Shown: one piece after another, positions 1-59,174 of the stretch
How the letters are laid out: each line of letters opens with the position of its first letter
How positions within the stretch are numbered: position 1 is the stretch's first letter
Assembly (NCBI GenBank): GCA_037783415.1
Contig: JAZGTN010000044.1
Coordinates: 1,116,001-1,180,000 of the forward strand
Direction of reading: 5' to 3'
Source: Leptasterias polaris
Lineage: Eukaryota > Echinodermata > Asteroidea > Forcipulatida > Asteriidae
DNA length: 64,000 nucleotides
Made by a program: the position numbers and the translations under genes
The notes under the pieces: generated by a model
The model's database searches: none
Seen by the model: the letters and a program-made list of their open reading frames with translations, nothing else
What the model was told of the DNA's origin: nothing

Positions 1-700
1 AACCCTAACCCTAGCCCTAACGCCAATCCTAACCCTAACCCTAACCCTACTTTTGATCACAAACCCTTACCCCAAATCCTAACCCTAACCAAATAAGTTG
101 TTATGCTCATTAATTTAAAACTTGTCATCAACAACCCTAACACTAACCCTAACCCTAACCCTAACCCTAACCCTAACCCTAGCCCTAACGCCAATCCTAA
201 CCCTAACCCTAACCCTACTTTTGATCACAAACCCTTACCCCAAATCCTAACCCTAACCCCAACATTAACCCTAACCCTAACCAAATAAGTTGTTATGCTC
301 ATTAATTTCAAACTTGTCATCAACAACCCCAACCCCAACCCCAACCCTAACCCTAACCCTAACCCTAACCCTACTTTGGATCAAAAACCCTAACCCCAAC
401 CCTAACCCTAACCCTTACAAAGTAAGTTTTTATGCTTGTTAATTTAAAATGGTTGATCAAAAACCCTAACCCTAAACCTAACCCTAACCCTTACCAAGAA
501 AGTTTTTATGCTCATTAATTTAAGACTTTTCATCAACAACCCTCCCCAACCCTAACCATAACCCTAACCATAACCCTACTTTTGATTAAAAAAAACCAAC
601 CCTAAACATAAACCTTACCCCAACATTTACCAATTAATATTTGTATGCTCATTAATTTAAAATATTTTATCAAAAACCCTAACCCTAACCTTAGCTGTTC
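1..700 (+). repeat. Degenerate telomere-type CCCTAA array with interspersed spacer
   Basis: Mostly CCCTAA/CCCTAAC hexamers with many variants (CCCTTAC, CCCCAAC). They are broken at about 85-130, 283-330, 418-450, 492-540 and 630-672 by an AT-rich spacer around 'aagttnttatgctcattaat'. The C-rich strand reads 5'->3' from the left edge, which is the orientation expected at a left chromosome end. The array is impure, so this is subtelomeric or interstitial telomere-like DNA rather than a fresh telomere. A reading frame at 103-288 is only the translated repeat. Confidence 0.85.
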
Positions 701-26500: not shown

Positions 26501-29500
26501 ACATTTATTTCCTAGAATAATAGGGCAAACTCTTTTTTAAAGGTATAAATTACTCGGAAGGGGGGAAAATGAAACCAAGATTGACATACGTCTTCCCAGC
26601 ATCGGTTTGAAGTTGGCAATCTCAGTCTGAGATTCTTCTGTAGCTGAGCATGCTCCTTTACTTAGTTTGAAGATGTGTTCATGATGATCCCTGCAAATTA
26701 AAAAAACAATAAATATATATCAACTAGCTAACTTTCCAAGGCAAACCCTAGGTAAAAGAAACTATAAATAAACGCAATAATTGTGTTTATTATTATTATT
26801 ATTATTTATTCGACCAAAACAAACAAACCAAAGTTACAATAGCACAAGAAAGAACATTAACGGAAAAACAGTTATAAAAAAAGCAAGTAATAAGGAAAAT
26901 AAATACAAAATTAGAAGAAAAAAAATTAATTAATAAATAAAATTAAATAAATAAGAAAATAAAAGCAAAAAAAAAAAATAAAAAAAATATATGAGGGCGA
27001 CTGAGGGCAGAGCATGCAGGAGGGGAACAAAACCAAATGGGAAGGACAACCAGAAGGGATAAAAACAAGGACAAATCATGCGGGTCAGGGGTAACAATTA
27101 AAAGTAAACTAAATTACTGTTGCTCGGAAGCATGCTGCCCCACGCATGACCAACAAACACAATGAACGCAGAAACAACAATAGGGAGAAACCAAACGGGG
27201 GCTCGTTCACGACCTGCATGCAACCAAAATGAACATCTAATGCACTGTGTGATTTAAACAATGATCCTTAAGGAGGCGGAGAAATGTCATAAGAGGACAG
27301 ATTACAGCAGCTTCGCGAATGAAGGATGGAAAAGTGTCCCACTGTCTATGTGTTTGCATTTTTTTATTGCTCGAGATTAATGACTTTATTAGATTGCACT
27401 TAGACACATCGTCATTTGTATTGGGAAAATATGATTATAAATATGTAATATATAGTATGTAGTCTTACTGGTTGGTAATTTCTTCATATGTGGCCATGAC
27501 TTGGGCCTCCCAGGTTTCTGGCTGGCGTTGCAGATACTTCTTCATGTATTGATTGTCCAGATGTTCAAGCCAAATCTGCAAAAACACAGAATCCGTCTAC
27601 ATATAAGATGTCAACATACAGGGGAAATAAGAGAAGCATGGACTGAATAAAGGAGAAGGTTCGCACCCTGACCTGGCTACACCATGACAAAGGTGCACGA
27701 CAATGGACTGGATCTACAAAGCACTGGATCTACAAAGAACTAGATCTACATAAATTGGAACTACAAAAATTGGAACTACAAAAATTGGAACTACAAAAAA
27801 TGGATCTACAAAAAATGGATCTACAAAAAATGGATCTACAAAAAATGGATCTACAAAAAATGGATCTACAAAAAATGGATCTACAAAAAATGGATCTACA
27901 AAAAATGGATCTACAAAAAATGGATCTACAACTGACTGGATCTACAAAGGACTGGATCTACAAAGGACTGGATCTACAAAGGACTGGATCTACAAAGGAC
28001 TGGATCTACAAAGGACTGGATCTACAAAGGACTGGATCTACAAAGGACTGGATCTACAAAGGACTGGATCTACAAAGGACTGGATCTACAAAGGACTGGA
28101 TCTACAATGTACTGGATCTATAAAGGACTAGATCTACAAAGGACTGGATCTACAAAGGACTGGATCTACAAAGCACTGGATCTACAAAGCACTGGATCTA
28201 CAAAGGACTGGATCTACAAAGGACTGGATCTACAAAGGACTGGATCTACAAAGGACTGGATCTACAAAGGACTGGATCTACAAAGGACTGGATCTACAAA
28301 GGACTGGATATACAAAGAACTGGATATACAAAGAACCGGATCTACAAAAAACTTGATCTACATATAATTGGAACTACAAAAGATTGAATCTACAAAGAAC
28401 TTGATCTATTGGGCATCAATAGGTTGGCTCCCTGCCTTTCACCTGTGACCTATGTTCTAATTCCAGACTGGCACCTTGCATCTGAATTGGGTTTCCAGTC
28501 TTTACCTGATTGCATTTTCCCTATTTTGGGATTTCCTCCTACTTTTATCATTGAGATTTCTTCATTATCTTCTCTGCACAGCTACCTTAAAGGCCCTGTA
28601 CACTATTGGTAAGATCGAAAAACACAAATGTTCACAGAATCACACATAACTTACATGATTTAAAGTAAGTAATGGTAGAAAGGGTTCCTTAAAATATTTC
28701 TGCCTAAAATGCTATCGTTTCTGAGAAATGAGTAAAACAATAGTTTTTAGCAAGCGTGATAATAAACTCGATGTTTGAAAAACAGAAAACACATAAGGTA
28801 TCTTTTCACTATTTTCTCGTGACCTCGATGACCAATTGAGCTGAAATTTTCACAGGTTTGTTATTTCATGTGTGATTGATCACACAAAACATGAACACTA
28901 TCTGTGACTATTTTGTCAGCTTTACCAATCCTGTATAATACCTTTAAGGTCGAGGGGGTAATTTTGCTGGGACCTTTTGAGGGTCCCTTGGTTTCTTACC
29001 AGAAAGATGCAATAGTAATAACAATCCATTAAAGTCTTACCCTGAGAGAATTGCGTCCCTTGTGTCCTATGACTTCTTCAATTCCTGCCATCATGTAGTC
29101 CATGATCTGTGAAAAAAAAAACCATGAAAATGTAACTATCCAAACAGTATTAAAGGGTTCAAATATGCCCATGTACATCACTGTATAAAAGAAGTAACTT
29201 GATTCAATAGACGATGTGACCTCTGTTTACAATCAAACCGCCCTCTGTTGACAAGTCTGTTGTCCAAGTCATGTTCCGCCGGGCAAAAAGACGCGTAGTC
29301 ATGGTAATATTGCGTGTACTTTCTAGCTGGCTGTCAAGTACACAAAGGTTTTGCCCGGCGACATGCGCGCGCATCATGTTATGATTTTCAAATGACGTCA
29401 GAGGTCACATCGTCTATAGACACACCATCCAACCAGCTTGTGAAAATTTCATTTAAAACAAAATTTGTGCATATATAAGTTATTGAGCTTACATTATTAT

Positions 29501-32500
29501 GGATTCCCAGTGTCACACTTGGCTCATCTTCCTCAGATTGGCGTTTGATTCTGAACAGCTTCACCAGTGGTTTAATCGTAGTCCCCTAGAAAATGATGAG
29601 GAGAATCAATTAAAAAATAATAATCATAGAAATATCCATTGAAAAACACATATGTATCATTGGTAATTGTCAAAGACCAGTACCCACACTTGATGTGACC
29701 CAACATATACATGAAATAACAAACCTGTGAAAGTTTAAGCTCAATTGGTCATTGGAATCACAAGAAAAAAGTGGGGAAAAACCTTAAGTGTTTTCACTGT
29801 TTTCAAACATCGAGTTTTTGACCCATGAGATCAAAACTAACTGTTTTACTCATTTCTCAACACTTAAAGCAAAAATATTTCAAAGGGAGTATCCCATCAT
29901 GACCACCTTTATACCATGTAAGTTATGCATGAATCTGGGAACATTTATATTGTTACTCTTACCAATGTTATAAACACCCTTTAAGCACAGCCCATGTTCC
30001 TGACAACGGTGATCATGTGAGCAGACACATGCAGCCCCGACCCCTCTATTATAAACCTTGATGATGCCATGGTGCTGTTTTAAACAGTGTTTTTAAACAA
30101 ACTTTGTGTACTCTCTTATCTGATGGTTTAGACTATATAAAAGAGATCGTGTTTGCAAATTACACGCTATTATAAAACATACTGTTTGAAACAGTACGAT
30201 GGCGTAAGCGTGTGCATGGATTTGACGGTGTTACTGAAGGTTCAGCCGCGAACTGCGTCACACACAAAATGCCTTGACGACAATACTCATGCGACCTGCA
30301 GCATCAGGCTTTCTCCTGAAGACGGTCAGAGCATACTGATGGAATCAACCAGTTGGTGCACCATCGGTTCTTATCAGAACCACAACTCAGAGAGATATTT
30401 CATGTACACGGTGCTACCGCAAGCGTTACTAAAATCCATTATTTATTCAACCATGATTTATACAAGTAATAAACCACAAGGAAAATGTGGTTTACTAGAC
30501 ATTTGAACAAAAAGTTGCATCCCTTTAAAGTGATCCCTCTGCTGCCACTTCCCAAGTTGTATCCTAAACTTGGGTGTGATCCATGGCTATATGGCAGTTA
30601 CAGGTTGAATGACTTCTGACTGGCACCCGAACAATGATATTGACAACATAGGGCGACCACCAACATATAGGGCTAGATAGCTTAGTTGGTAGAGCGTCAG
30701 CAAGTTAATCTGGAGGTTGCCCGCTCAAGTCCTGCTATAGTCAATTTTCTTTTGTTCAATCCAAAAATTACAATTTTGAAGTTCCTGACTTATTACCTGA
30801 ATGAAGACCGTGAAGAGAATGACCACCAGTGTGGTGGTAACCAGCACGTTACGGACAGGAACATCACCTACTGTTAGTGTAGCTACTAATGAGAAGGCAA
30901 CAGCACCACGCAGACCACCATAGCTCTGAATTCAACAATCACAAACAGATAACCACAAATGAATTGATTATTGTTTTCAAGGGTTACTTCGACCAGTAAT
31001 GGAATATGCTGCCCCTGCCTGGCATTCTTCACTGACTCTGGGCCAATCTAACCAGCTAGAACTAGTTCAAAAACGCATTTGTCGTATTCTGCTTGGCACT
31101 AATTATTATAATTATGACCAAGCTCTATGTGTGTTGAATCTGGATTCCTTGTTTGAAAGGAGGAACAAACTTTGCTCTAAATTTGCTTTGAAAACTTTCA
31201 GGTCTACAAAATTTGCTGACTGGTTCCCCAAGCCAAATAAGGTCCATGGTATGGATTTAAGAACCAAACTGGTGATTTACAAACATAAAGGTTCCACAAA
31301 AAGATTTCATAACAGCCCTATTCCGTATCTAACTGATTTGTTAAATGACATGCTTAAAGATTGATTATTTTTTATCTTTTATAAAATAATGTTTTTATAT
31401 TGGAGTTCATAATAGCCATATTTTGTATCTAACTGGATGCTATATGACATGCCCTTTTTTTTTTTCTTTTTTTTAAATGTTTGTTCATTGGTGTTTGTGC
31501 CCTGTTTTTTCAAGGATTTACATCGCCTGTGTTTTTTGGCGCTTTGAAGTTTTTATCGACTATGTAATTTTTTTAATTACCTTAGTGTACTGTTGTTTTT
31601 TACCTACTGTAACCACTGTGCAATTCAGCCTTCGGGCTGCAATATGGTGTGAATAAACCAATAATAAAATAAATAAAATAATACGTCATCTGATTTTGGA
31701 AGATTATATTCGTTTACAATCCTTCAGGGAGAGTTAAATTGTTATGCTATACAACCAACCCAAGTCATCAGACTTGGTGCAAGTGGAATTGACAACAATC
31801 TGTTAATAGATTATGTTAGTGTAAGATTTGTGTAAGTTCATAAAGTTACTTATTTTGATTGCTGCAATTGAAATAAGCAAGATGATATTAATTCCTCATC
31901 AATGACAGCTTTTGAAACAGAACTATTTCACTGGAGGATAGGTGCTGGTATGAAAAAAGGGCTCAATTATTTCACCTATGTATTCCAACCCTTTTTTAAC
32001 CTTAAAGGCAAAGTATACCTTTGGTTTTTGGAACCGTTCGATTGTTTTAATCCTATATAAATGTAGATATATACAATAGAAATAAACTGTGAAAATTTAT
32101 TACAAAAGGTGGCAGCATTTTTCAGGTATTGCAAACAATCTGTGTACATCCACGCAGGAAGAGTAATCCGTAATTGGAATGCACAATCTGAGATTGAGTA
32201 TCGCCAAAAATCTGTGTACATCCACGCAGGAAGAGTAGTCCGTAATTGGAATGCACAATCTGAGATTGAGTATCGCCAAAAATCTTTGTACAGCCAAGCA
32301 GGAAGAGTAGTCTGTAATTGGAATGCACCATCTGAGATTGAGTATCGCCAAAAATCTGTGTACAGCCAAGCAGGAAGAGTAGTCCGCAATTGGAATGCAC
32401 AATCTGAGATTGAGTATCGCCAAAAATCTGTGTACAGCCAAGCAGGAAGAGTAGTCCGTAATTGGAATGCACAATCTGAGATTGAGTATCGCCAAAAATC

Positions 32501-35500
32501 TGTGTACATCCAAGCAGGAAGAGTAATCTGTAATTGGAATGCACAATCTGAGATTGAGTATCGCCAAAAATCTGTGTACATCCAAGCAGGAAGAGTAATC
32601 CGTAATTGGAATGCACAATCTGAGATTGAGTATCGCCAAAAATCTGTGTACATCCAAGCAGGAAGAGTAGTCCGTAATTGGAATGCACAATCCGAGATTG
32701 AGTATCGCCAAAAATCTGTGTACATCCAAGCAGGAAGAGTAATCCGTAATTGGAATGCACAATCTGAGATTGAGTATCGCCAAAAATCTGTGTACATCCA
32801 AGCAGGAAGAGTAATCCGTAATTGGAATGCACAATCTGAGATTGAGTATCGCCAAAAATCTGTGTACATCCAAGCAGGAAGAGTAATCCATAATTGGAAT
32901 GCACAATCTGAGATTGAGTATCGCCAAAAATCTGTGTACATCCAAGCAGGAAGAGTAGTCTGCAATTGGAATGCACAATCTCAGATTGAGTATCGCCAAA
33001 AATCTGTGTACATCCAAGCAGGAAGAGTAATCTGTAATTGGAATGCACCATCTCAGATTGAGTATCGCCAAAAATCTGTGTACATCCAAGCAGGAAGAGT
33101 AATCTGTAATGAATGCACTATCTCAGATTGAGTATCGCCAAAAATCTGTGTACATCCAAGCAGGAAGAGTATAATCTGTAATTGGAATGCACCATCTGAG
33201 ATTGAGTATCGCCAAAAATCTGTGTACATCCAAGCAGGAAGAGTAATCCATAATTGGAATGCACAATCCGAGATTGAGTATCGCCAAAAATCTGTGTACA
33301 TCCAAGCAGGAAGAGTAGTCCGTAATTGGAATGCACAATCTGAGATTGAGTATCGCCAAAAATCTGTGTACATCCAAGCAGGAAGAGTAATCTGTAATTG
33401 GAATGCACAATCTGAGATTGAGTATCGCCAAAAATCTGTGTACAGCCAAGCAGGAAGAGTAGTCCGTAATTGGAATGCACAATCTGAGATTGAGTATCGC
33501 CAAAAATCTGTGTACATCCAAGCAGGAAGAGTAATCTGTAATTGGAATGCACAATCTGAGATTGAGTATCGCCAAAAATCTGTGTACAGCCAAGCAGGAA
33601 GAGTAGTTCGTAATTGGAATGCACAATCTGAGATTGAGTATCGCCAAAAATCTGTGTACATCCAAGCAGGAAGAGTAATCCATAATTGGAATGCACAATC
33701 CGAGATTGAGTATCGCCAAAAATCTGTGTACATCCAAGCAGGAAGAGTAGTCCGTAATTGGAATGCACAATCCGAGATTGAGTATCGCCAAAAATCTGTG
33801 TACATCCAAGCAGGAAGAGTAATCCGTAATTGGAATGCACAATCTGAGATTGAGTATTGCCAAAAATCTGTGTACATCCAAGCAGGAAGAGTAGTCCGTA
33901 ATTGGAATACACAATCTGATAAAAGTTTCAAGCATGAAATGTTCGCAGATTGAAATCAGTTTGATTCCCTTTCTCTAAAACTAAATTACTTAGAAGGGAA
34001 TCGTTCCTCAAAATGTTGTACATTATCAACTGCTGCAGTACTTCTTACCAAGTAAGTTTTTATTAATATTTTGAGAAATTACCAAAGGTAATCCCTCCCT
34101 TTAAATGCAGTTGATTGTCTTTATGCGATTAAACAAGATTTGCATCATCAAAGATTGAACACCGCAGTTCTTTTTTTATTAAACGCCTTTTAAAATGCAC
34201 ACAACATGGTCATGTTCCCTGTCTACAACAGCAGTTATTGAATACTGGTACATACATGTATTACACTAAAAGGGGCTTGACTGTTTTTGCAGTTTGCCTC
34301 AGTTTGTTCACAATGATTTAAATGTGAAAAAAATAATATAAAAATGCCTGCGAAAAAAAGAAGACTTACCATTACAAACTGTTCTTCTTTATTGATCTTG
34401 TTGATACGAAATTTGTTGACCACAAATGTCATTAACACCACCCCTTGAGAAATACAGCAAACAACAAGTACTGATTTAAAAAAAAGCTACAACTGGTATC
34501 CAGCTACAACTGGTATCCAGCTACAACTGGTATCCAGCTACAACTGGTATCCAGAATCATCCACTCCGCAAAACAATTCTTCATCCAATTTGTGACCCAA
34601 TCTGAGGTCAATTTGTGACCCAATCTGAGGTCAATTTGTGACCCAATCTGAGGTCAAATGTAATAAAAAACATGCATTTGTTATATAGTGCTCTGACAAC
34701 ACCGGATCAGACGGCTCAGCCCCATCACACAAGGTTATTCCACGGTTACCCACACCACTGTGAACAAAGATACACAACATCTGGTATTCTTAAAGATGTC
34801 AACTTCAACTATTGAAATTTGTTATAAATAAAAACAAATTTATATGTGTCAAGTCTAAAAAAGATATCACATTCAAACTTTTTATACAAATGACAAGTAG
34901 ATATACTTTTGGTAATTGTCAAAAACCAGTATCCTCACTAATAGTGTATCCAAACATACGCATAAAATAACAAACCTGCGAAAATGTTGGCTAGATTGGT
35001 CATCAAAGTTGCAAGAAAACAATGAAAGGAAAAAACCCACCCTCATTGAATAGAATTGTGTGTTTTCAGATGCCTGAGTAAGGCCTCATGCCTCAAGCCT
35101 TTCTCACATTCAAAATTGTTGGTGAAAAATTAACTCTTTCTCTAAAACTACATTACTTCAAAGCGTGTCGTTTCTAACAATAATTTATTATTTCAATAGC
35201 TCTACAGTGCTCTTTACCAAATAAGTTGCAATGGGAATTAGATTTCTGGAGTAATTACCAAAGGCATACCCTCCCTTTAAAATTGTTTTTTGTTTTTACC
35301 CACTGCCCGGTAGAGGAAGATGAATACAAGAGTAAGTAGCACAAAGCCTGTGTTCCATTCATGTGTCTGTGCCCACAGAGTCTGCCCTAGCTGGAAGAAG
35401 ATCAATGACTCTGTTGTTGTCCTGAAGCAAAAGAAGTAAACATCAACAACAACAACAATTATCCATTGCTTACAACTGGTAATTCTGATCAAATACAAGG

Positions 35501-51118: not shown

Positions 51119-51299
51119 GTGGGTCTAGGGCTAGCACACTTTCACTTATTCAATATTGATTAAGATTCTTAATCAGACAATTTGACTTATTGAATTTATG
51201 ATTTTTTTATGTCAAAAACAAGTGGTTTAAACTTTAAAAGTGGAAACGAAAGTAATAGAATACTTCAACAACAACAATAATAACAGGACACTTTTCATA

Positions 51300-52247
51300 T
51301 ATCCTCCCCTGTCCGGTTTTCGATGTAGTATGCCTTTTTCTTTGAATTGAAAAAAATAAAAATAAATCCATAATCAACTGATGCCCTAATTACCTTCCTT
51401 TGTTTATAAGAAATATGCAAACATATATTAAAACGTGATGGACATTGAAACTTTCACACCACGCACCGATCTTCGATGACTTCAATAGCGTCCCATTTGT
51501 TTTGAGTTTGACCTGTTTTCGGTGCAAACAAGAAAGTATGGTGTCCGGGTGAAGCCATACGTGGAAGAAACATCTGCAGTGACTACAAGTGTTCTGTGAG
51601 ACTTAGTGTATGACTCTATAGCCAGCAGTTTTCTTCATTTTATTCAACATATTTTTTATTTAGTTTTAAAAATAACCATGGCCCATTTTTCAAAAAAAAA
51701 AATTAAAAAAAATGTAAATAATTCTTGGCTTTCAAATATTATTTTTATTTAGTTTTGTGTCTTTTTATGTTTCTTAACATTTATAATAAATCATATAAAT
51801 AAACAGTGATAATCGAATCACAAAGCTGATGTTAAAATTTTAATATTAATAACAAAAATGATAGAGACCATAGAGTGTTACAAAAACAAATTATTCAGAC
51901 TATTAGAAAATGATATAAGGCACGTGGCTTCTTTAAGCCTCTGTATTTTTCCCCCCCAGAATGCTCAGCAGAATGTTCAGTCACATGATTTGATCATCGT
52001 GAATTGTGAATTGAAAAAGTGTTTGATGAAACTTTTTCGGTGGGAATTTTTTTTTTTATGGCCCCGACAGTATGACATATTTTTGTATCTTGCATAAATG
52101 CCTAAAATACCACAACTTTTTGCATTTACAAGTGCAACTAACCAGTGGAGCCTTACATGTTTCTAAGTTTTGGCAAGTCAAAGCACAAAAATTGTATCTA
52201 GGGACTGTTTACATCGCGCGCAGAGAGGTAAAAGATGTGCCTCGATA
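51300..52247 (+). mobile_element. Element X, copy 1
   Basis: Starts TATCCTCCCCTGTCCGG. It is collinear with copies 2 and 3 ('gtagtatgcctttttctttg', 'cacgcaccgatcttcgatga', 'gtgaattgaaaaagtg'). The 3' hairpin region is deleted, leaving 'cctcgata'. No recognised protein. Confidence 0.88.
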
Positions 52248-52389
52248 TAGGTAGGTTGCTGCACATGTTTTATTCTAATCAAAAAACGTCCTAAATACCA
52301 CGGTACTATTATTTTATTATTAGGGTTATCATGGAGGTAGGACCTACCTCCATGGGGTTATCAACAATTACCATCCTATTCCTACTTAC

Positions 52390-52600
52390 CAAGAGGTCGC
52401 ACTCGCAAGGACCATAGAACAAGGAAGGACGAACTCCAACTTAGTTAGGACTTTGTCGGGTGGGTTTGGAACGGAGTGCAGGTGGTTGGATTTTGGGGCG
52501 AGCTGATGAACGTAAAGTAGTTAGTTGTCAGTCAGGTACGGCCGAACATGATAATTGATATTTATACACTTGGATTGCACGCTCCTCTCCTCTCTCCAGA
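52390..52600 (-). other. NHE exon 1 (non-coding 5' exon) and promoter zone
   Basis: The minus-strand donor CTTG|gtaagtagg at 52389-52390 is a strong consensus, upstream of the coding-exon acceptor at 50223. Its 5' end is not resolved; 'ataaaaatataata' on the minus strand near 52610-52625 may serve as a TATA-like element. Short frames lack a good start before the donor. Confidence 0.6.
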
Positions 52601-52720
52601 GTCATACCTGTTGTATTATATTTTTATGGGTGTGTTTTTTGGGTGTCAATCCAAAGTCTGGCGCTCTCTCAATGCACCATTTAGGGGTCAATGATTGAGC
52701 CAATCAAATCGCTCGATATG

Positions 52721-53306
52721 TATCGTAGGACGCCCTGTATTCAGGGGGTCCCTGAAATCGAGGCAAACCTTTGACCTCTCTGCGCGCGATGTAAACAGTC
52801 CCAAGATACAATTTTTGTGGTTTGACTTGCCAAGCAAAGAGTCTCCTCTCATTTGACCAAAACTTAGAAACATGTAAGGCTCCACTGGTTAGTTGCACTT
52901 GTAAATGCAAAAAGTTGTGGTATTTTAGGCATTTCTGCAAGGTACAAAAATATGTCATACTGTCGCGGCCATAAAAAAAAAATTCCCACCGAAAAAGTTT
53001 CATCAAACACTTTTTCAATTCACAATTCACGATGATCAAATCATGTGACTGAACATTCTGCTGAGCATTCTGGGGGAAAAATACAGAGGCTTAAAGAAGC
53101 CATGTGCCTTATATCATTTTCTAATAGTCTGGATAATTGTTTTTTGTAACACTCTATCATTTTTGTTATTAATATTAAAATTTAAACATCAGCTTTGTGA
53201 TTCGATTATCACTGTTTATTTATATGCTTTATTATAAATGTTAAGAAACATAAAAAGACACAAAACTAAATAAAAATAAGATTTGAAAGCCAAGAATTAT
53301 TTAATT

Positions 53307-53337
<31 letters not shown>

Positions 53338-53729
53338 TGAAAAATACCATGGTTATTTTTAAAAACTAAATAAAAAATATGTTGAATAAAATGATGAAAA
53401 CTGCTGGCTATAGAGTCATACACTAAGTCTCACAGAACACTTGTAGTCACTGCAGATGTTTCTTCCACGTATGGCTTCACCCGGACACCATACTTTCTTG
53501 TTTGCATCGAAAACAGGTCAAACTCAAAACAAATGGGACGCTATTGAAGTCATCGAAGATCGGTGCGTGGTGTGAAAGTTTCAATGTCCATCACGTTTTA
53601 ATATATGTTTGCATATTTCTTATAAACAAAGGAAGGTAATTAGGGCATCAGTTGATTATGGAATATTTTTATTTTTTTTCAATTCAAAGAAAAGGGCATA
53701 CTACATCGAAAACCGGACAGGGGAGGATA
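52721..53729 (-). mobile_element. Element X, copy 2 (complete)
   Basis: 1009 bp on the minus strand from TATCCTCCCCTGTCCGG (53729) to 'cctacgata' (52721). The 3' end has a hairpin (GGAC-CCCTG / CAGGGCGTCC). No TIR longer than about 4 bp and no clear target duplication. It carries a T run of more than 30 at 53299-53331. Confidence 0.9.
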
Positions 53730-53734
53730 TACGT

Positions 53735-53819
53735 GTGTGATTTGACACTCTCCAAGATGGCGACCTCCATGAGCCCGGTTTGCTGAGTGAGGAGTGTTGA
53801 CTTTAGTCGTGTGATCAGA
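53735..53819 (+). other. Probable non-coding first exon of the downstream plus-strand gene
   Basis: 'ccaagatggcgacc' (53752-53765) resembles the YY1-type initiator found at metazoan promoters. A consensus donor CAGA|gtaagtg follows at 53820. The ATG at 53757 opens only a 9-codon frame. Linkage to the exon at 60599 is inferred from strand and lack of other candidates. Confidence 0.45.
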
Positions 53820-53994
53820 GTAAGTGTTATAGATGTTTTCGAAGCGATTTAAATTCTAGAAGACCGGGATTCTTATTTACTTAAGAATGGGGGTATTAAA
53901 CTAGTCATTCTATGTTTATTTAGTCTGTATGGGACAATTGCATGGGATCTGACTGTCGTCGTGTGCGCTGTGTGTGTATGTTAGTGTGTAACTG

Positions 53995-54025
53995 TTTCAT
54001 CACGCGTCACACACACACGCACACA
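53995..54025. repeat. (CA)n-like microsatellite
   Basis: Short 'cacacacacacgcacac' run. Confidence 0.7.
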
Positions 54026-55164
54026 ACCATCCACGAGTCGTTTGACCAGTACCGGATCACTAACCACTTAATCACTTCTCACATACCGGTACATTGTAGC
54101 CAATTTCTGTTGATACACGTGAAGAATAGCAAATACTAATAGGGCCTACCACAACAGTAACACATCTATGATCTATTGATTAGTAATACTGGTAATGTGG
54201 TAACTAAATAGACTATCCTCCCCTGTCCAGTTTTCGATGTAGTATGCCTTTTTCTTTGAATTGAAAAAAAATAAAAATATTCCATAATCAACTGATGCCC
54301 TAATTACCTTCCTTTGTTTATAAGAAATATGCAAACATATATTAAAACGTGATGGACATTGAAACTTTCACACCACGCACCGATCTTCGATGACTTCAAT
54401 AGCGTCCCACTGTCGCCCGGGCATTTGTTTTGAGTTTGACCTGTTTTCGATGCAAACAGGAAAGTATGGTGTCCGGGTGAAGCCACACGTGGAAGAAACA
54501 TCTGCAGTGACTACAAGTGTTCTGTGAGACTTAGTGTATGACTCTATAGCCAGCAGTTTTCTTCATTTTATTCAACATATTTTTTATTTAGTTTTAAAAA
54601 TAACCATCGTATTTTTCAAAAACTTTTTCCAAAAAAAAATAAAATAAAAATGTAAATAATTCTTGGCTTTCAAATGTTATTTTTATTTAGTTTTGTGTCT
54701 TTTTATGTTTCTTAACATTTATAATAAAGCATATAAATAAACAGTGATAATCGAATCACAAAGCTGAAGTTTAAATTGTAATATTAATAACAAAAATGAT
54801 AGAGTGTTACAAAAAAAAATTATCCAGACTATTAGAAAATGATATAAGGCATGTGGCTTCTTTAAGCCTCTGTATTTTTTTCCCCAGAATGCTCAGCAGA
54901 ATGTTCAGTCACATGATTTGATCATCGTGAATTGTGAATTGAAAAAGTGTTTGATGAAACTTTTTCGGTGGGAATTTTTTTTTTTATGGCCCCGACAGTA
55001 TGACATATTTTTGTACCTTGCAGAATATGGGGCGCCGTTTGTCAATTATTGTTTAGCGTATTTTTGACGTGTTTTTACCATGGTTTGTAATAATTAGATG
55101 TAAACCATAGAAAGTGCTGTCAATTTATTTTGTGGTTTACATACCATAAATTTACAATCAAAGC

Positions 55165-56000
55165 TTATAAATTATGGTTTATAAACCATGAAAATTGAAT
55201 CATCATAAAACATGGTTTATAAACCATGGTTTATAAACCATGAAAATTGAAGCGTCATAAAACATGGTTTATAAACCATGAAAATTTAAGCACCTTCAAA
55301 ACATGGTTTATAAACCATAAAAATTTAAGCATAATAAAACATGGTTTATAAACCATGAAAATTTAAGCACCTTCAAAACATGGTTTATAAACCATAAAAA
55401 TTTAAGCATCAAAACATGGTTTACAAATCATGGTTTATAAACCATGAAAATTTAAGCATCTTCAAAACATGGTTTATAAACCATAAAAATGTAAACATGG
55501 TTTACAAATCATGATTCATGGTTTATAAACCATGAAAATTTAGGCATCCTCAAAACATGGTTTATAAATCATGGTTTATAAACCATGAAAATCGTGTGTT
55601 CACAAATCATGGTTTATAAACCATAAAAACGTGTGTCACAAATCATGGTTTATAAACCATAAAAATCGTGTGTCACAAAATCATGGTTTATAAACCATGA
55701 AAATCGTGTGTCACAAATCATGGTTTATAAACCATAAAAAACGTGTGTCACAAATCATGGTTTATAAACCATGAAAATCGTGTGTCACAAATCATGGTTT
55801 ATAAACCATAAAAATCGTGTGTCACAAAATCATGGTTTATAAACCATGAAAATCGTGTGTCACAAATCATGGTTTATAAACCATAAAAATCGTGTGTCAC
55901 AAATCATGGTTTATAAACCATGAAAATCGTGTGTTCACAAATCATGGTTTATAAACCATAAAAAACGTGTCACAAATCATGGTTTATAAACCATAAAAAA
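55165..56000 (+). repeat. Left-arm array of an 18-bp palindrome
   Basis: About 22 copies of 'tggtttataaacca', many extended to CATGGTTTATAAACCATG. They are separated by two spacer types: 'aaaatttaagca' (outer) and 'aaaatcgtgtgtcacaaatc' (inner). Every unit is self-complementary, so the array can form a chain of small hairpins as well as pair with the other arm. Confidence 0.95.
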
Positions 56001-56183
56001 CCGTGTCCTAATTAACGGCTACAGCTACGGCTACGGCTAGATTTCCGCGTCATCATGCGTTGAAGTATAGGACATCCTTAGCAACATCCTTAGCAACAGC
56101 CGTAGCTGTATCTGTAGCCGCCAATTCGGATACGGCTCACATCGTCTCATTGAAACCTCCTTCCCAATTCTGATCGGTTCCCC

Positions 56184-56435
56184 ATGCGAGCTAGCAATGA
56201 TGTAATGCACCGCGTGCCATGCGGCATGCCGGCAGAGGCTCGAGGAAACCACTCTAATCTCAAACGTGCACTGTTTAAACACTGGCACTTAATAAATGAC
56301 AGTGATCTCCTTAACAAACTCTTCCCTGTACCACCTCTGTTGGCCTACAAAAGACAAAAGAACATAAAAGACCAAATAATTCGGGCTAGATTGCAAGATT
56401 CAACCGAAGAAAACATACTCAAAGAAATGGACTAA
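56184..56435 (+). pseudogene. Penelope-like coding fragment, left arm
   Basis: Encodes 'LKRALFKHWHLINDSDLLNK' and 'LFPVPPLLAYKRQKNIKDQI', then 'IRARL' and a stop. The KHW-L-…-F--PPL-AYKR-KN-KD--IRA pattern resembles the segment between the RT and the GIY-YIG nuclease of Penelope-like elements. Neither domain itself is present. An extra A near 56152 breaks the longer upstream frame seen in the right arm. Confidence 0.6.
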
Positions 56436-56565
56436 CAGAACTTGCAAATCCTGGTTGAATTACTCCAAGAACAACAGTTTGGTAATAAATTAAAGAAACA
56501 ACAGGGTTTGGATCCAGACGAGATTACGTTTAACTATGGTGTTCCATATGTGCCACTCCTTTCCG

Positions 56566-56812
56566 TCGCCTTTTCAATTTTGTCTGTCGCCTTTTCAATT
56601 TTGTCCGTCGCCTTTTCAATTTTGTCCGTCGCCTTTTCAATTTTGTCCGTCGCCTTTTCAATTTTGTCTGTCGCCTTTTCAATTTGGTCCGTCGCCTTTT
56701 CAATTTGGTCCGTCGCCTTTTCAATTTTGTCCGTCGCCTTTTCAATTTTCTTCCGTCGCCTTTTCAATTTTGTCCGTCGCCTTTTCAATTTTGTCCGGTG
56801 GCCTTTTCAATT
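56566..56812 (+). repeat. 21-bp repeat, 12 copies (left arm)
   Basis: Units 'gtcgccttttcaattttgtc' plus one base. The period is a multiple of three, so long frames on both strands result. Confidence 0.95.
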
Positions 56813-56814
56813 TT

Positions 56815-57094
56815 TCAGGCGCATTTTTTTTCTGAAACGGCCACGTGACTGTCACATGATGACCATGTGATGATTTGTTGGCAAAGAAAAATGATTGGAT
56901 ACCTCAACCATACTGTCTATGTACAGGCTTTGCTTAGTAAATCAAGAATGAAACTGAAAAAGGATATTATCGTAGTTATCTGGTCTCGCGACTGGATGAA
57001 GCAACATATACATTTTGGCAACTGCGGTATGCCTCCCAAAGGTCGAATTTCCTTCGGAGTCATGTGATAGTCACGTAGTCACGTGGACCCACGA
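56815..57094. other. Loop of the foldback element
   Basis: Mostly single copy. Its rims carry inverted 'ccacgtgac' / 'gtcacgtgg' and 'catgtgatg' / 'catgtgat' motifs with CACGTG cores (56831-56876 and 57059-57089). A 66-codon plus-strand frame (56867-57067) is not recognised. Confidence 0.6.
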
Positions 57095-57100
57095 TGGAAA

Positions 57101-57247
57101 AATTGAAAAGGCGACGGACAAAATTGAAAAGGCGACGGACAAAATTGAAAAGGCGACGGACAAAATTGAAAAGGCGACGGACAAAATTGAAAAGGCGCCG
57201 GAAGAAAATTGAAAAGGCGACGGACGAAAATTGAAAAGGCGACGGAA
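57101..57247 (-). repeat. 21-bp repeat, 7 copies (right arm)
   Basis: Reverse complement of the left array but with 7 instead of 12 units: copy number has drifted after the arms formed. Confidence 0.95.
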
Positions 57248-57374
57248 AGGAGTGGCACATATGGAACACCATAGTTAAACGTAATCTCGTCTGGATCCAA
57301 ACCCTGTTGTTTCTTTAATTTATTGTACCAAACTGTTGTTCTTGGCGTAATTCAACCAGGATTTGCAAGTTTTG

Positions 57375-57806
57375 TTAGTCCATTTCTTTGAGTATGTTTT
57401 CTTCGGTTGAATCTTGCAATCTAGCCCGAATTATTTGGTCTTTTATGTTCTTTTGTCTTTTGTAGGCCAACAGAGGTGGTACAGGGAAGAGTTTGTTAAG
57501 GAGATCACTGTCATTTATTAAGTGCCAGTGTTTAAACAGTGCACGTTTGAGATTAGAGTGGTTTCCTCGAGCCTCTGCCGGCATGCCGCATGGCACGCGG
57601 TGCATTACATCATTGCTAGCTCGCATGGGGAACCGATCAGAATTGGGAAGGAGGTTCAATGAGACGATGTGAGCCGTATCCGAATTGGCGGCTACAGCTA
57701 CAGCTACGGCTGTTGCTAAGGATGTTGCTAAGGATGTCCTATACTTCAACGCATGATGACGCGGAAATCTAGCCGTAGCCGTAGCTGTAGCCGTTAATTC
57801 GGACAC
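57375..57806 (-). pseudogene. Penelope-like coding fragment, right arm
   Basis: A minus-strand copy with a longer open frame (143 codons) because one base differs. It starts in the translated 'ggctacagctac' repeat (TATATATA-rich) and continues through the same KHWHLI and PPLLAYKRQKN motifs to the stop. It is nearly identical to the left-arm copy. Confidence 0.6.
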
Positions 57807-58805
57807 GGTTTTTTATGGTTTATAAACCATGATTTGTGACACACGTTTTTTATGGTTTATAAACCATGATTTGTGAACACACGATTTTCATGGTTTATAA
57901 ACCATGATTTGTGACACACGATTTTTATGGTTTATAAACCATGATTTGTGACACACGATTTTCATGGTTTATAAACCATGATTTTGTGACACACGATTTT
58001 TATGGTCAAACCATGATTTGTGACACACGATTTTCATGGTTTATAAACCATGATTTTGTGACACACGATTTTTATGGTTTATAAACCATGATTTGTGACA
58101 CACGTTTTTTATGGTTTATAAACCATGATTTGTGAACACACGATTTTCATGGTTTATAAACCATGATTTGTGAACACACGATTTTCATGGTTTATAAACC
58201 ATGATTTGTGACACACGATTTTTATGGTTTATAAACCATGATTTGTGAACACACGATTTTCATGGTTTATAAACCATGATTTGTGACACACGTTTTTATG
58301 GTTTATAAACCATGATTTGTGAACACACGATTTTCATGGTTTATAAACCATGATTTACAAACCATGTTTTGAGGATGCCTAAATTTTCATGGTTTATAAA
58401 CCATGAATCATGATTTGTAAACCATGTTTACATTTTTATGGTTTATAAACCATGTTTTGAAGATGCTTAAATTTTCAGGGTTTATAAACCATGATTTGTA
58501 AACCATGTTTTGATGCTTAAATTTTTATGGTTTATAAACCATGTTTTGAAGATGCTTAAATTTTCATGGTTTATAAACCATGTTTTGAAGGTGCTTAAAT
58601 TTTCATGGTTTATAAACCATGATTTGTAAACCATGTTTTATTATGCTTAAATTTTTATGGTTTATAAACCATGTTTTGAAGGTGCTTAAATTTTCATGGT
58701 TTGTAAACCATGTTTTATGACGCTTCAATTTTCATGGTTTATAAACCATGGTTTATAAACCATGTTTTATGATGATTCAATTTTCATGGTTTATAAACCA
58801 TAATT
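57800..58805 (-). repeat. Right-arm array of the same palindrome
   Basis: Mirror image of the left array, with the spacer types in reversed order and a somewhat different copy number. One unit at about 58003 is shortened to 'tatggtcaaaccatg'. Confidence 0.95.
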
Positions 58806-59174
58806 TATAAGCTTTGATTGTAAATTTATGGTATGTAAACCACAAAATAAATTGACAGCACTTTCTATGGTTTACATCTAATTATTACAAACCATGGTAA
58901 AAACACGTCAAAAATACGCTAAACAATTAATTGACAAACGGCGCCCCATAGCAGAAATGCCTAAAATACCACAACTTTTTGCATTTACAAGTGCAACTAA
59001 CCAGTGGAGCCTTACATGTACATGTTTCTAAGTTTTGGTCAAATGAGAGGAGACTCTTTGCTTGGCAAGTCAAACCACAAAAATTGTATCTAGGGACTGT
59101 TTACATCGCGTGCAGAGAGGTAAAAGATTTGCCTCGATTTCAGGGACGCCCTGAATACAGGGCGTCCTACGATA

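What the first reader, a model, noticed from the sequence alone, without database searches (positions are those of the whole stretch)
55026..58950. 3.9-kb foldback transposon with arms built from self-complementary palindromes
The element is a near-perfect giant inverted repeat (arms about 1.8 kb, loop about 280 bp) with an exact 6-bp duplication GCAGAA, and the empty site is readable in the sister X copy at about 52921-52950. Its arms carry about two dozen copies each of CATGGTTTATAAACCATG, so the element is palindromic at two scales. Foldback/TU elements with tandem-repeat arms are known in sea urchins, but this palindrome array plus duplicated coding cargo is not one I can match.
Basis: partly seen in the sequence, partly recalled or inferred. 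Interest (0 to 1): 0.9.

Follow-up and report, generated by a model that had tools for sequence, protein, structure and literature searches.

The report
Mirror-made palindromic transposon
This is a real, recently mobile DNA transposon shaped like a giant palindrome, and earlier versions of it still in the same genome show how it arose: a second transposon landed inside it and everything on one side of that insertion was then copied in mirror image on the other side.

Summary
Window 55026-58950 is a 3,925-bp foldback transposon ("A": TATGGGG...CCCCATA) with a 6-bp target duplication (GCAGAA); two sister repeats show the empty site. In the held host genome (630 Mb) the 18-bp terminus has 641 matches, and 21 of 37 elements examined carry exact 6-bp duplications. 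TA...TA ends with 6-bp duplications point to IS3EU/GingerRoot, not TU, Galileo or P. The "coding cargo" is the 3' end of a Penelope-like retroelement (97% identical to a genomic copy).

The new part is the origin. A second palindromic transposon, "B", sits at the exact centre between mirror-image flanks. The same genome holds the stages: site empty (11 exact matches, one read in context), B inserted with an ordinary TTTAAC duplication (3 read, 1 truncated), and mirrored product (20 loci, 10 read in full). Arm-specific mutations in those 10 show one mirroring event followed by transposition. The reverse composite (A inside mirrored half-B) has the same geometry but no surviving precursor; a third (A between 37-bp Mutator-like ends) is only weak support. 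I infer that a nested palindromic transposon served as the axis for fold-back repair. The mirror step is well supported; the repair route is inferred.

The parts
55020..55025 (+). left target-site duplication GCAGAA
   Evidence: empty site in sister X copies
55026..58950 (.). whole element (mirrored form of family A), TATGGGG...CCCCATA, 3925 bp
55026..55998 (+). left A arm: terminus, short unique stretch, then array of palindromes (core GGTTTATAAACC, 23 units)
55999..56131 (+). module C: short inverted-repeat (MITE-like) insert, approximate limits
   Evidence: positions; sequence
   Evidence: 97.3% over 291 bp to L083; 97.25% to the C72 copy
56535..57273 (+). nested transposon B (TATGGTGTTCC...GGAACACCATA, 21-bp arrays, asymmetric loop), the axis of the mirror
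   Evidence: first 40 flanking bases on each side are exact mirror images
57274..57562 (-). mirrored copy of the retroelement fragment
57675..57812 (-). mirrored copy of module C, approximate limits
57813..58950 (-). right A arm (25 palindrome units)
58951..58956 (+). right target-site duplication GCAGAA
52074..52113 (+). empty target site in sister X copy 1
52911..52952 (-). empty target site in sister X copy 2

Best explanation
The element is a non-autonomous DNA transposon moved by a DDE transposase of the IS3EU/GingerRoot type (inferred), and its giant palindrome was made by a mirror duplication. Steps: (1) Family A had TA...TA ends and arms of palindrome arrays; one lineage carried module C and a 5'-truncated Penelope-like insert on one side (shown). 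(2) Another palindromic transposon, B, inserted beside the retroelement fragment with a 6-bp TTTAAC duplication (shown). (3) The side of A adjoining B's right end (A tip, array, C, retroelement fragment) was copied in inverted orientation onto B's other end, replacing what was there (shown as an outcome). The likely route is a break at or near B, annealing of B's two self-complementary arms into a hairpin, and copying back along the flank (inferred). (4) The product had two identical A tips, so A's transposase could move it, and it is now at 20 assembled loci (shown). (5) The palindromes in the arrays probably serve as extra transposase-binding sites, as in Galileo (analogy only).
For: Stage series in one genome: empty site GATTACGTTTAAC|TAAAAACAAACG, 11 exact matches, one of them (L039) read in its A context; B inserted with direct TTTAAC duplication in L014, L058 and L062, 4 exact matches genome-wide; mirrored ACGTTTAAC|B|GTTAAACGT at 20 loci with both junctions, 10 of them read in full. 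The ~348 bp present in L014 and L039 are missing at the same join in 19 of 19 mirrored arms tested and in both L020 arms (L020_L had been left out), so 20 of 20 arms, as expected if one arm was copied from the other. Arm-specific variants, oriented by B's loop: T plus a 2-nt deletion in 7 of 10 alpha arms and 0 of 10 beta; another T in 3 of 10 alpha and an A in 3 of 10 beta, from the same three elements. The 10 elements have 10 different 6-bp duplications. Reverse composite: 9 of 37 examined A elements sit between mirrored B right-halves, exact for 125-150 bases on both sides in 9 of 9 (150 fetched), against 8-19 of 40 matching bases in 12 ordinary A elements taken as control. In the 5 of 9 read more widely B's left-half motif is absent and the right-half motif is on both sides. 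Fold-back annealing of inverted repeats in resected DNA, giving inverted dimers, is described for yeast in PMC10164571 (passages).
Against: The three verified precursors (L014, L058, L062) lack the ~348-bp deletion, so the immediate parent was not found. No precursor of the half-B composite turned up: 0 matches at up to 3 mismatches; a search for its empty site did not complete. The Mutator-like composites are weak support: symmetry ends after 15-37 bases (offset by 4 in L011), no more than the host MITE's own inverted ends, and their precursor search gave 4 one-mismatch matches, two of which were read and showed no Mutator-like flank. Array units evolve too fast to show whether the outer array of the new arm came from the same arm (fold-back) or the opposite arm (gap repair). 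One variable column (a homopolymer gap) is not cleanly arm-specific. No autonomous A was found, so the transposase assignment rests on ends, duplication length and a relative. Copy counts include duplicated or allelic loci (e.g. identical flanks in L092/L096; same duplication in L049 and L050). 10 of the 11 empty-site matches and 10 of the 20 mirrored loci were not read.
Confidence: 0.72

Rival explanations
1. Inter-arm gap repair: B (or a break beside it) opened a gap; the broken right side was resected back to A's array and invaded the opposite, inverted arm on the sister chromatid, copying it inward to B. Only the interior is mirrored; the outer arm stays original.
For: A and B both have inverted ends that could serve as template; Galileo extends its ends by recruiting interior sequence and by passing an inserted element from one end to the other (PMC4168063, PMC3573991, passages).
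Against: Most mirrored arms, alpha and beta alike, share the array run HJ(C)AK, which neither arm of L014 shows (strings; L014's other arm read by eye). That fits copying of a whole arm, but it is weak because arrays change fast and L032_R lacks the run.
Confidence: 0.2
2. Alternative transposition or sister-chromatid joining: the identical ends of a palindromic transposon on two sister chromatids are used as one pair, fusing mirror-image flanks.
For: A and B have near-identical ends; maize inversions by alternative transposition are known (PMC8225341, search listing only).
Against: The usual joint of two cut flanks would lack B, whereas B is retained with both ends and its loop in the parental orientation.
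Confidence: 0.08
3. Plain insertion of B into the middle of an already palindromic A.
For: B lies at the exact centre.
Against: Left hexamer TTTAAC and right hexamer GTTAAA are mirror images, not a direct duplication, while B elsewhere makes 6-bp direct duplications (14 of 17 copies with both ends read); the empty site exists in an asymmetric context.
Confidence: 0.02
4. Assembly artefact (palindromic or hairpin reads).
For: Hairpin artefacts do occur in long-read assemblies (general knowledge).
Against: Arms differ by substitutions and unit indels, and arm-specific variants recur in independent insertions with different duplications.
Confidence: 0.02

Closest known systems
IS3EU / GingerRoot superfamily of DNA transposons
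   Same: TA...TA ends and 6-bp duplications, as described in PMC10045372 (passages). Element D in the same genome has TATGGG... ends, 6-bp duplications and an integrase-type (rva_4) transposase exon.
   Different: No transposase was seen in A. Whether rva_4 equals IS3EU was not tested. The passages I read do not mention palindrome-array arms in this superfamily.
Galileo (P superfamily) of Drosophila
   Same: Long, internally repetitive inverted ends; recruitment of interior sequence and of inserted elements into both ends (PMC3573991, PMC4168063, passages); several transposase-binding sites in the ends (PMC3688188, abstract).
   Different: Galileo makes 7-8 bp duplications and its transposase is of P type. 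In the passages read, no stage series and no nested palindromic element acting as the axis is described.
Foldback elements of Mutator type (Tetris, TU, FB)
   Same: Long repetitive inverted arms and little or no coding capacity.
   Different: Duplications of 8-10 bp (Tetris, PMC4079207, passages; TU recalled) against 6 bp here.
Fold-back (hairpin-mediated) inverted duplications in yeast and human chromosomes
   Same: Inverted repeat as axis, one flank copied in mirror image.
   Different: There the products are large chromosome rearrangements, often through dicentrics (PMC10164571, passages); here the product is bounded by transposon ends and becomes a new mobile element.

Membership tests
IS3EU/GingerRoot | termini TA...TA | tested here: met
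   TATGGGG...CCCCATA; criterion from PMC10045372
IS3EU/GingerRoot | 6-bp target-site duplication | tested here: met
   exact in 21 of 37 elements examined, 1 of 37 with one mismatch, 15 of 37 nested without direct duplication
IS3EU/GingerRoot | DDE transposase of this superfamily | tested here: inconclusive
   none seen in the A elements whose ORFs were listed; relative D with TATGGG ends has an rva_4 exon (E 1.8e-71); its phylogenetic placement was not tested
Foldback (structural class) | long, repetitive inverted arms making up most of the element | tested here: met
Mutator-type foldback (TU, FB, Tetris) | 8-11 bp target-site duplication (8-10 bp for Tetris in PMC4079207; the rest recalled) | tested here: not met
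   6 bp
Galileo / P superfamily | 7-8 bp duplication | tested here: not met
   6 bp; criterion from PMC4168063
Galileo / P superfamily | P-type transposase | not tested
   no P-transposase search was made
Polinton | 6-bp duplication with AG...CT ends (ends recalled) | tested here: not met
   ends are TATGGGG
Penelope-like retroelement (source of the cargo) | Penelope-type reverse transcriptase in the donor | tested here: inconclusive
   donor ORF in L083 matches RVT_1 at 1.4e-6, 28.6 bits, below the 29.6 cut-off; many of the 120 listed relatives carry RVT_1 and some GIY-YIG PF01541, a pairing I recall as typical of Penelope

The most novel reading that the evidence does not exclude
Palindromic transposons act as mirrors. 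When one lands inside another mobile element, fold-back repair at its hairpin copies one flank onto the other side and yields a larger palindrome bounded by two identical transposon tips, which then spreads. In this genome the cycle ran at least twice and in both directions (A mirrored around B, B mirrored around A), and perhaps a third time at a Mutator-like end, so foldback transposons can be made by nesting rather than by slow lengthening of their ends.
Probability: 0.45. Interest if true: 0.8.

Novelty: new variant of a known kind. Interest (0 to 1): 0.68.

Why it matters
In the Galileo and Tetris papers I looked into (passages), the lengthening of foldback arms is discussed from finished products. 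Here empty site, simple insertion and mirrored product of one event coexist in one genome, with at most 2.2% pairwise difference in the aligned segment, so the origin can be followed base by base. If nested palindromic transposons generally serve as fold-back axes, they link hairpin-mediated chromosome rearrangement, studied in yeast and human disease, to the birth of new mobile elements, and explain how unrelated sequence, here retroelement debris, gets doubled inside transposon arms.

Tried and rejected
Considered and rejected: TU/Galileo/P kinship (duplication length); plain insertion of B into a ready-made palindrome (mirror hexamers; precursors L014, L058, L062); assembly artefact (arm-specific variants shared between loci). 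I first counted the Mutator-like composites (6 of 37) as a full third mirror case. I considered that the Penelope-like reverse transcriptase might be a regular gene of an rva_4 transposon, because the four best rva_4 loci lie 3-4 kb from a cargo-like site. The genome-wide search put reverse-transcriptase matches at dozens of other loci, and the four copies beside rva_4 start at residue 272, so this looks like a truncated insertion in element D. I considered targeting of tRNA-like sites by B because 4 of 17 copies had GGTTCG duplications; the flanks are one amplified host repeat and ARAGORN found no tRNA in those 4 short loci. Ongoing homogenisation of arms: not seen; mean divergence within elements 0.74%, between 0.65-0.66%. 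Whether fold-back or inter-arm gap repair made the mirror could not be settled from array strings. Precursor searches for the other composites gave nothing usable. Literature: nine searches listed no paper whose title or abstract start describes a transposon mirrored around a nested palindromic transposon; I saw passages of five papers and the abstract of a sixth only, and most subscription journals are not in that library.
Full report
WHAT IS THERE. Window 55026-58950 begins TATGGGGCGCC and ends GGCGCCCCATA, flanked by GCAGAA on both sides. Its arms match each other with 23 mismatched columns over roughly 1.7 kb, a few 1-2 nt gaps and three array-sized indels. It lies in one of three copies of a host repeat X (51298-52246 +, 52757-53731 -, 54214-59174 + interrupted by the element); the other two show the unoccupied site. 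The arms hold 22 and 24 exact GGTTTATAAACC cores, 23 and 25 allowing one mismatch; 30 of the 44 within-arm spacings are 37-39 bp. All 48 window matches lie inside the element (0.26 expected).

IT IS A FAMILY. The host genome is held as G000 (629.7 Mb, 334 contigs). The terminal 18-mer (up to 2 mismatches) has 641 matches, against 6 for the reversed control. I took 36 convergent pairs from the first 100 listed matches and added the window element. Of these 37, 21 have exact 6-bp direct duplications, one has a duplication with one mismatch, and 15 have flanking hexamers that mirror each other (14 exact; L011 is offset by 4 bases). TA...TA ends and 6-bp duplications are what PMC10045372 gives for IS3EU/GingerRoot (passages).

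THE CENTRE IS ANOTHER TRANSPOSON. Positions 56535-57273 are a second palindromic transposon, B (TATGGTGTTCC...GGAACACCATA, 21-bp arrays). Its terminal 25-mer has 799 matches genome-wide, control 0. Of 18 B loci fetched, 17 have both ends; 14 of the 17 have exact 6-bp direct duplications, 1 has one mismatch and 2 have none. Four of the 17 are copies of a single amplified host locus. In the window element B's flanks are not a duplication but mirror images, identical over the first 40 bases.

THE STAGE SERIES. L039 is an asymmetric A with the site empty...GATTACGTTTAAC TAAAAACAAACG... L014, read on its reverse strand, has B there with a direct TTTAAC duplication. The window element has GATTACGTTTAAC|B|GTTAAACGTAATC. 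Genome-wide: 72 matches to the empty site at up to 3 mismatches, 11 of them exact (only L039 read in context) and 61 weaker, mostly GTTAAAC; the two of those 61 that I fetched (L082, L083) are retroelement copies. There are 4 direct junctions, all exact (the reversed control gave 5 chance matches at up to 3 mismatches). The mirror-side junction has 49 matches, forming 20 loci with both junctions, 8 single junctions and one two-mismatch match. Of the 8 singles, 3 (L014, L058, L062) have the direct duplication on B's other side; in the other 5 the far end of B was not found in the 2-kb piece, 3 of them running into inverted array. In the fourth direct junction (C84) B's other end is missing.

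ONE EVENT, THEN TRANSPOSITION. In 10 mirrored elements the C-plus-retroelement segment was aligned for both arms, with L014 and L039 as parents. Orienting by B's loop, variants are arm-specific: one T and a 2-nt deletion in 7 of 10 alpha and 0 of 10 beta arms; another T in 5 of 10 alpha and 0 of 10 beta; a third T in 3 of 10 alpha and an A in 3 of 10 beta, the last two from the same three elements. One further variable column, a homopolymer gap, is mixed: gap in 7 of 10 beta and 1 of 10 alpha. The ~348 bp present in both parents are missing at the same join in 20 of 20 arms (19, both L020 arms); L058 and L062 also still have them. Mean divergence is 0.74% within and 0.65-0.66% between elements, so arms are not being homogenised. 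The 10 elements have 10 different duplications. An assembly artefact cannot explain this.

THE REVERSE COMPOSITE. Nine of the 37 are A elements between mirrored B right-halves (CGAGACCAGATAGC|A|GCTATCTGGTCTCG). The flanks are exact mirror images for 125-150 bases in 9 of 9 (150 fetched), against 8-19 of 40 matching bases in 12 ordinary A elements used as control. In the five read more widely the right-half motif is on both sides and B's left-half motif is absent. These composites move as B: L049 and L050 share GAAACC, L055 has GTATAG, L056 GATTAG; L051 is truncated on the right. Some of the nine look like duplicated loci, so independent insertions are fewer than nine. No precursor was found, and the search for the empty site did not complete.

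A WEAKER THIRD CASE. Six of the 37 are small A elements between ends of a Mutator-like MITE (TTGCGGCAGAAACA|A|TGTTTCTGCCGCAA); L054, the wider fetch of L034, has a 9-bp duplication GGACGGGCG. The symmetry runs 15-37 bases (L011 offset by 4), the length of the MITE's own inverted ends, and then stops. The same mirror step could have made these, but their ends would be symmetric anyway, so they prove little.

THE CARGO. 56248-56536 is 97.3% identical over 291 bp to a retroelement copy at C97 (L083). That copy's 588-residue frame has a weak RVT_1 match, and 341 relatives pass 1e-20; among the 120 listed, named ones include Saccoglossus, Patiria, Pinctada and Branchiostoma, some with a GIY-YIG domain. 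It is best read as a 5'-truncated Penelope-like insert in A.

THE LIKELY ENZYME. No transposase gene was seen in the A elements whose ORFs I listed; L020 carries an inserted Gypsy-like integrase. A relative, element D (C72:1593397-1601553), has TATGGGCGGCC ends, inverted ends of about 571 bp (97.7%), duplication CGTGGG, and an rva_4 transposase exon (E 1.8e-71). Three further D loci show 6-bp duplications GCAGCG, CGGCCC and CGGCCC; the last two have identical flanks and are probably one locus. A, B and D share TATGG ends and 6-bp duplications, so I infer an enzyme of this kind.

HOW IT WORKS. Shown: B inserted into asymmetric A; one side was mirrored around B; the product transposed repeatedly. 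Inferred: the mirror arose by fold-back repair. A break at or near B, resection and annealing of B's complementary arms give a hairpin-primed end that copies the flank back. In yeast, inverted repeats in resected DNA favour intra-strand annealing and inverted dimers (PMC10164571, passages). Because B is palindromic to its last base, the mirrored flank starts exactly at B's end with no duplication, as seen. The main rival, gap repair from the opposite arm, makes nearly the same product and is not excluded. The palindrome arrays are probably transposase-binding sites, by analogy with Galileo (PMC3688188, abstract); untested.

VERDICT. A real, young foldback family, a new variant of a known kind. 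The surprising part is the preserved origin and its recurrence in the reverse composite.

Noticed in passing
L020:3480-6007 (G000 C9, inside a mirrored copy of the window element): A Gypsy-like retroelement insert (integrase ORF L020:6165-7637, Integrase_H2C2 and rve) contains a 1065-bp inverted repeat, 100% complementary, with 13 nt between the arms. A third, uninverted partial copy shows a natural 14-bp inverted repeat at the axis, as if fold-back had occurred there too. An assembly error is not excluded for this copy.
   Followed up: partly
G000 C72:1593397-1601553 (L087, L086, L088): Element D, about 8.2 kb: TATGGGCGGCC ends, inverted ends of about 571 bp, 6-bp duplications, an rva_4 transposase exon and a truncated Penelope-like insert. 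The four best rva_4 loci in the genome look like copies of it; two share flanks.
   Followed up: partly
L054:2964-3253 and L011, L017, L027, L029, L030, L034: Small MITEs with Mutator-like ends (GCGATATTTTTTTTCCAGCTCAGTTGCGGC; 9-bp duplication in L054) holding a miniature A element at the centre.
   Followed up: partly
L064, L066, L071, L078: B copies with the same GGTTCG duplication and flanks: one B insertion carried along by an amplified host repeat.
   Followed up: yes
window 51298-54213: Host repeat X occurs as a forward, a reverse and a forward copy in a row (about 92-95% alike), itself an inverted-repeat arrangement.
   Followed up: no
window 32126-33919 and 27700-28408: Large tandem arrays: 72-bp unit x 25 (95% matches) and 16-bp unit x 45.
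   Followed up: no
window 1-690: Telomere-like AACCCT repeats interspersed with other sequence, not at a contig end: the window starts at base 1,116,001 of contig C44.
   Followed up: no
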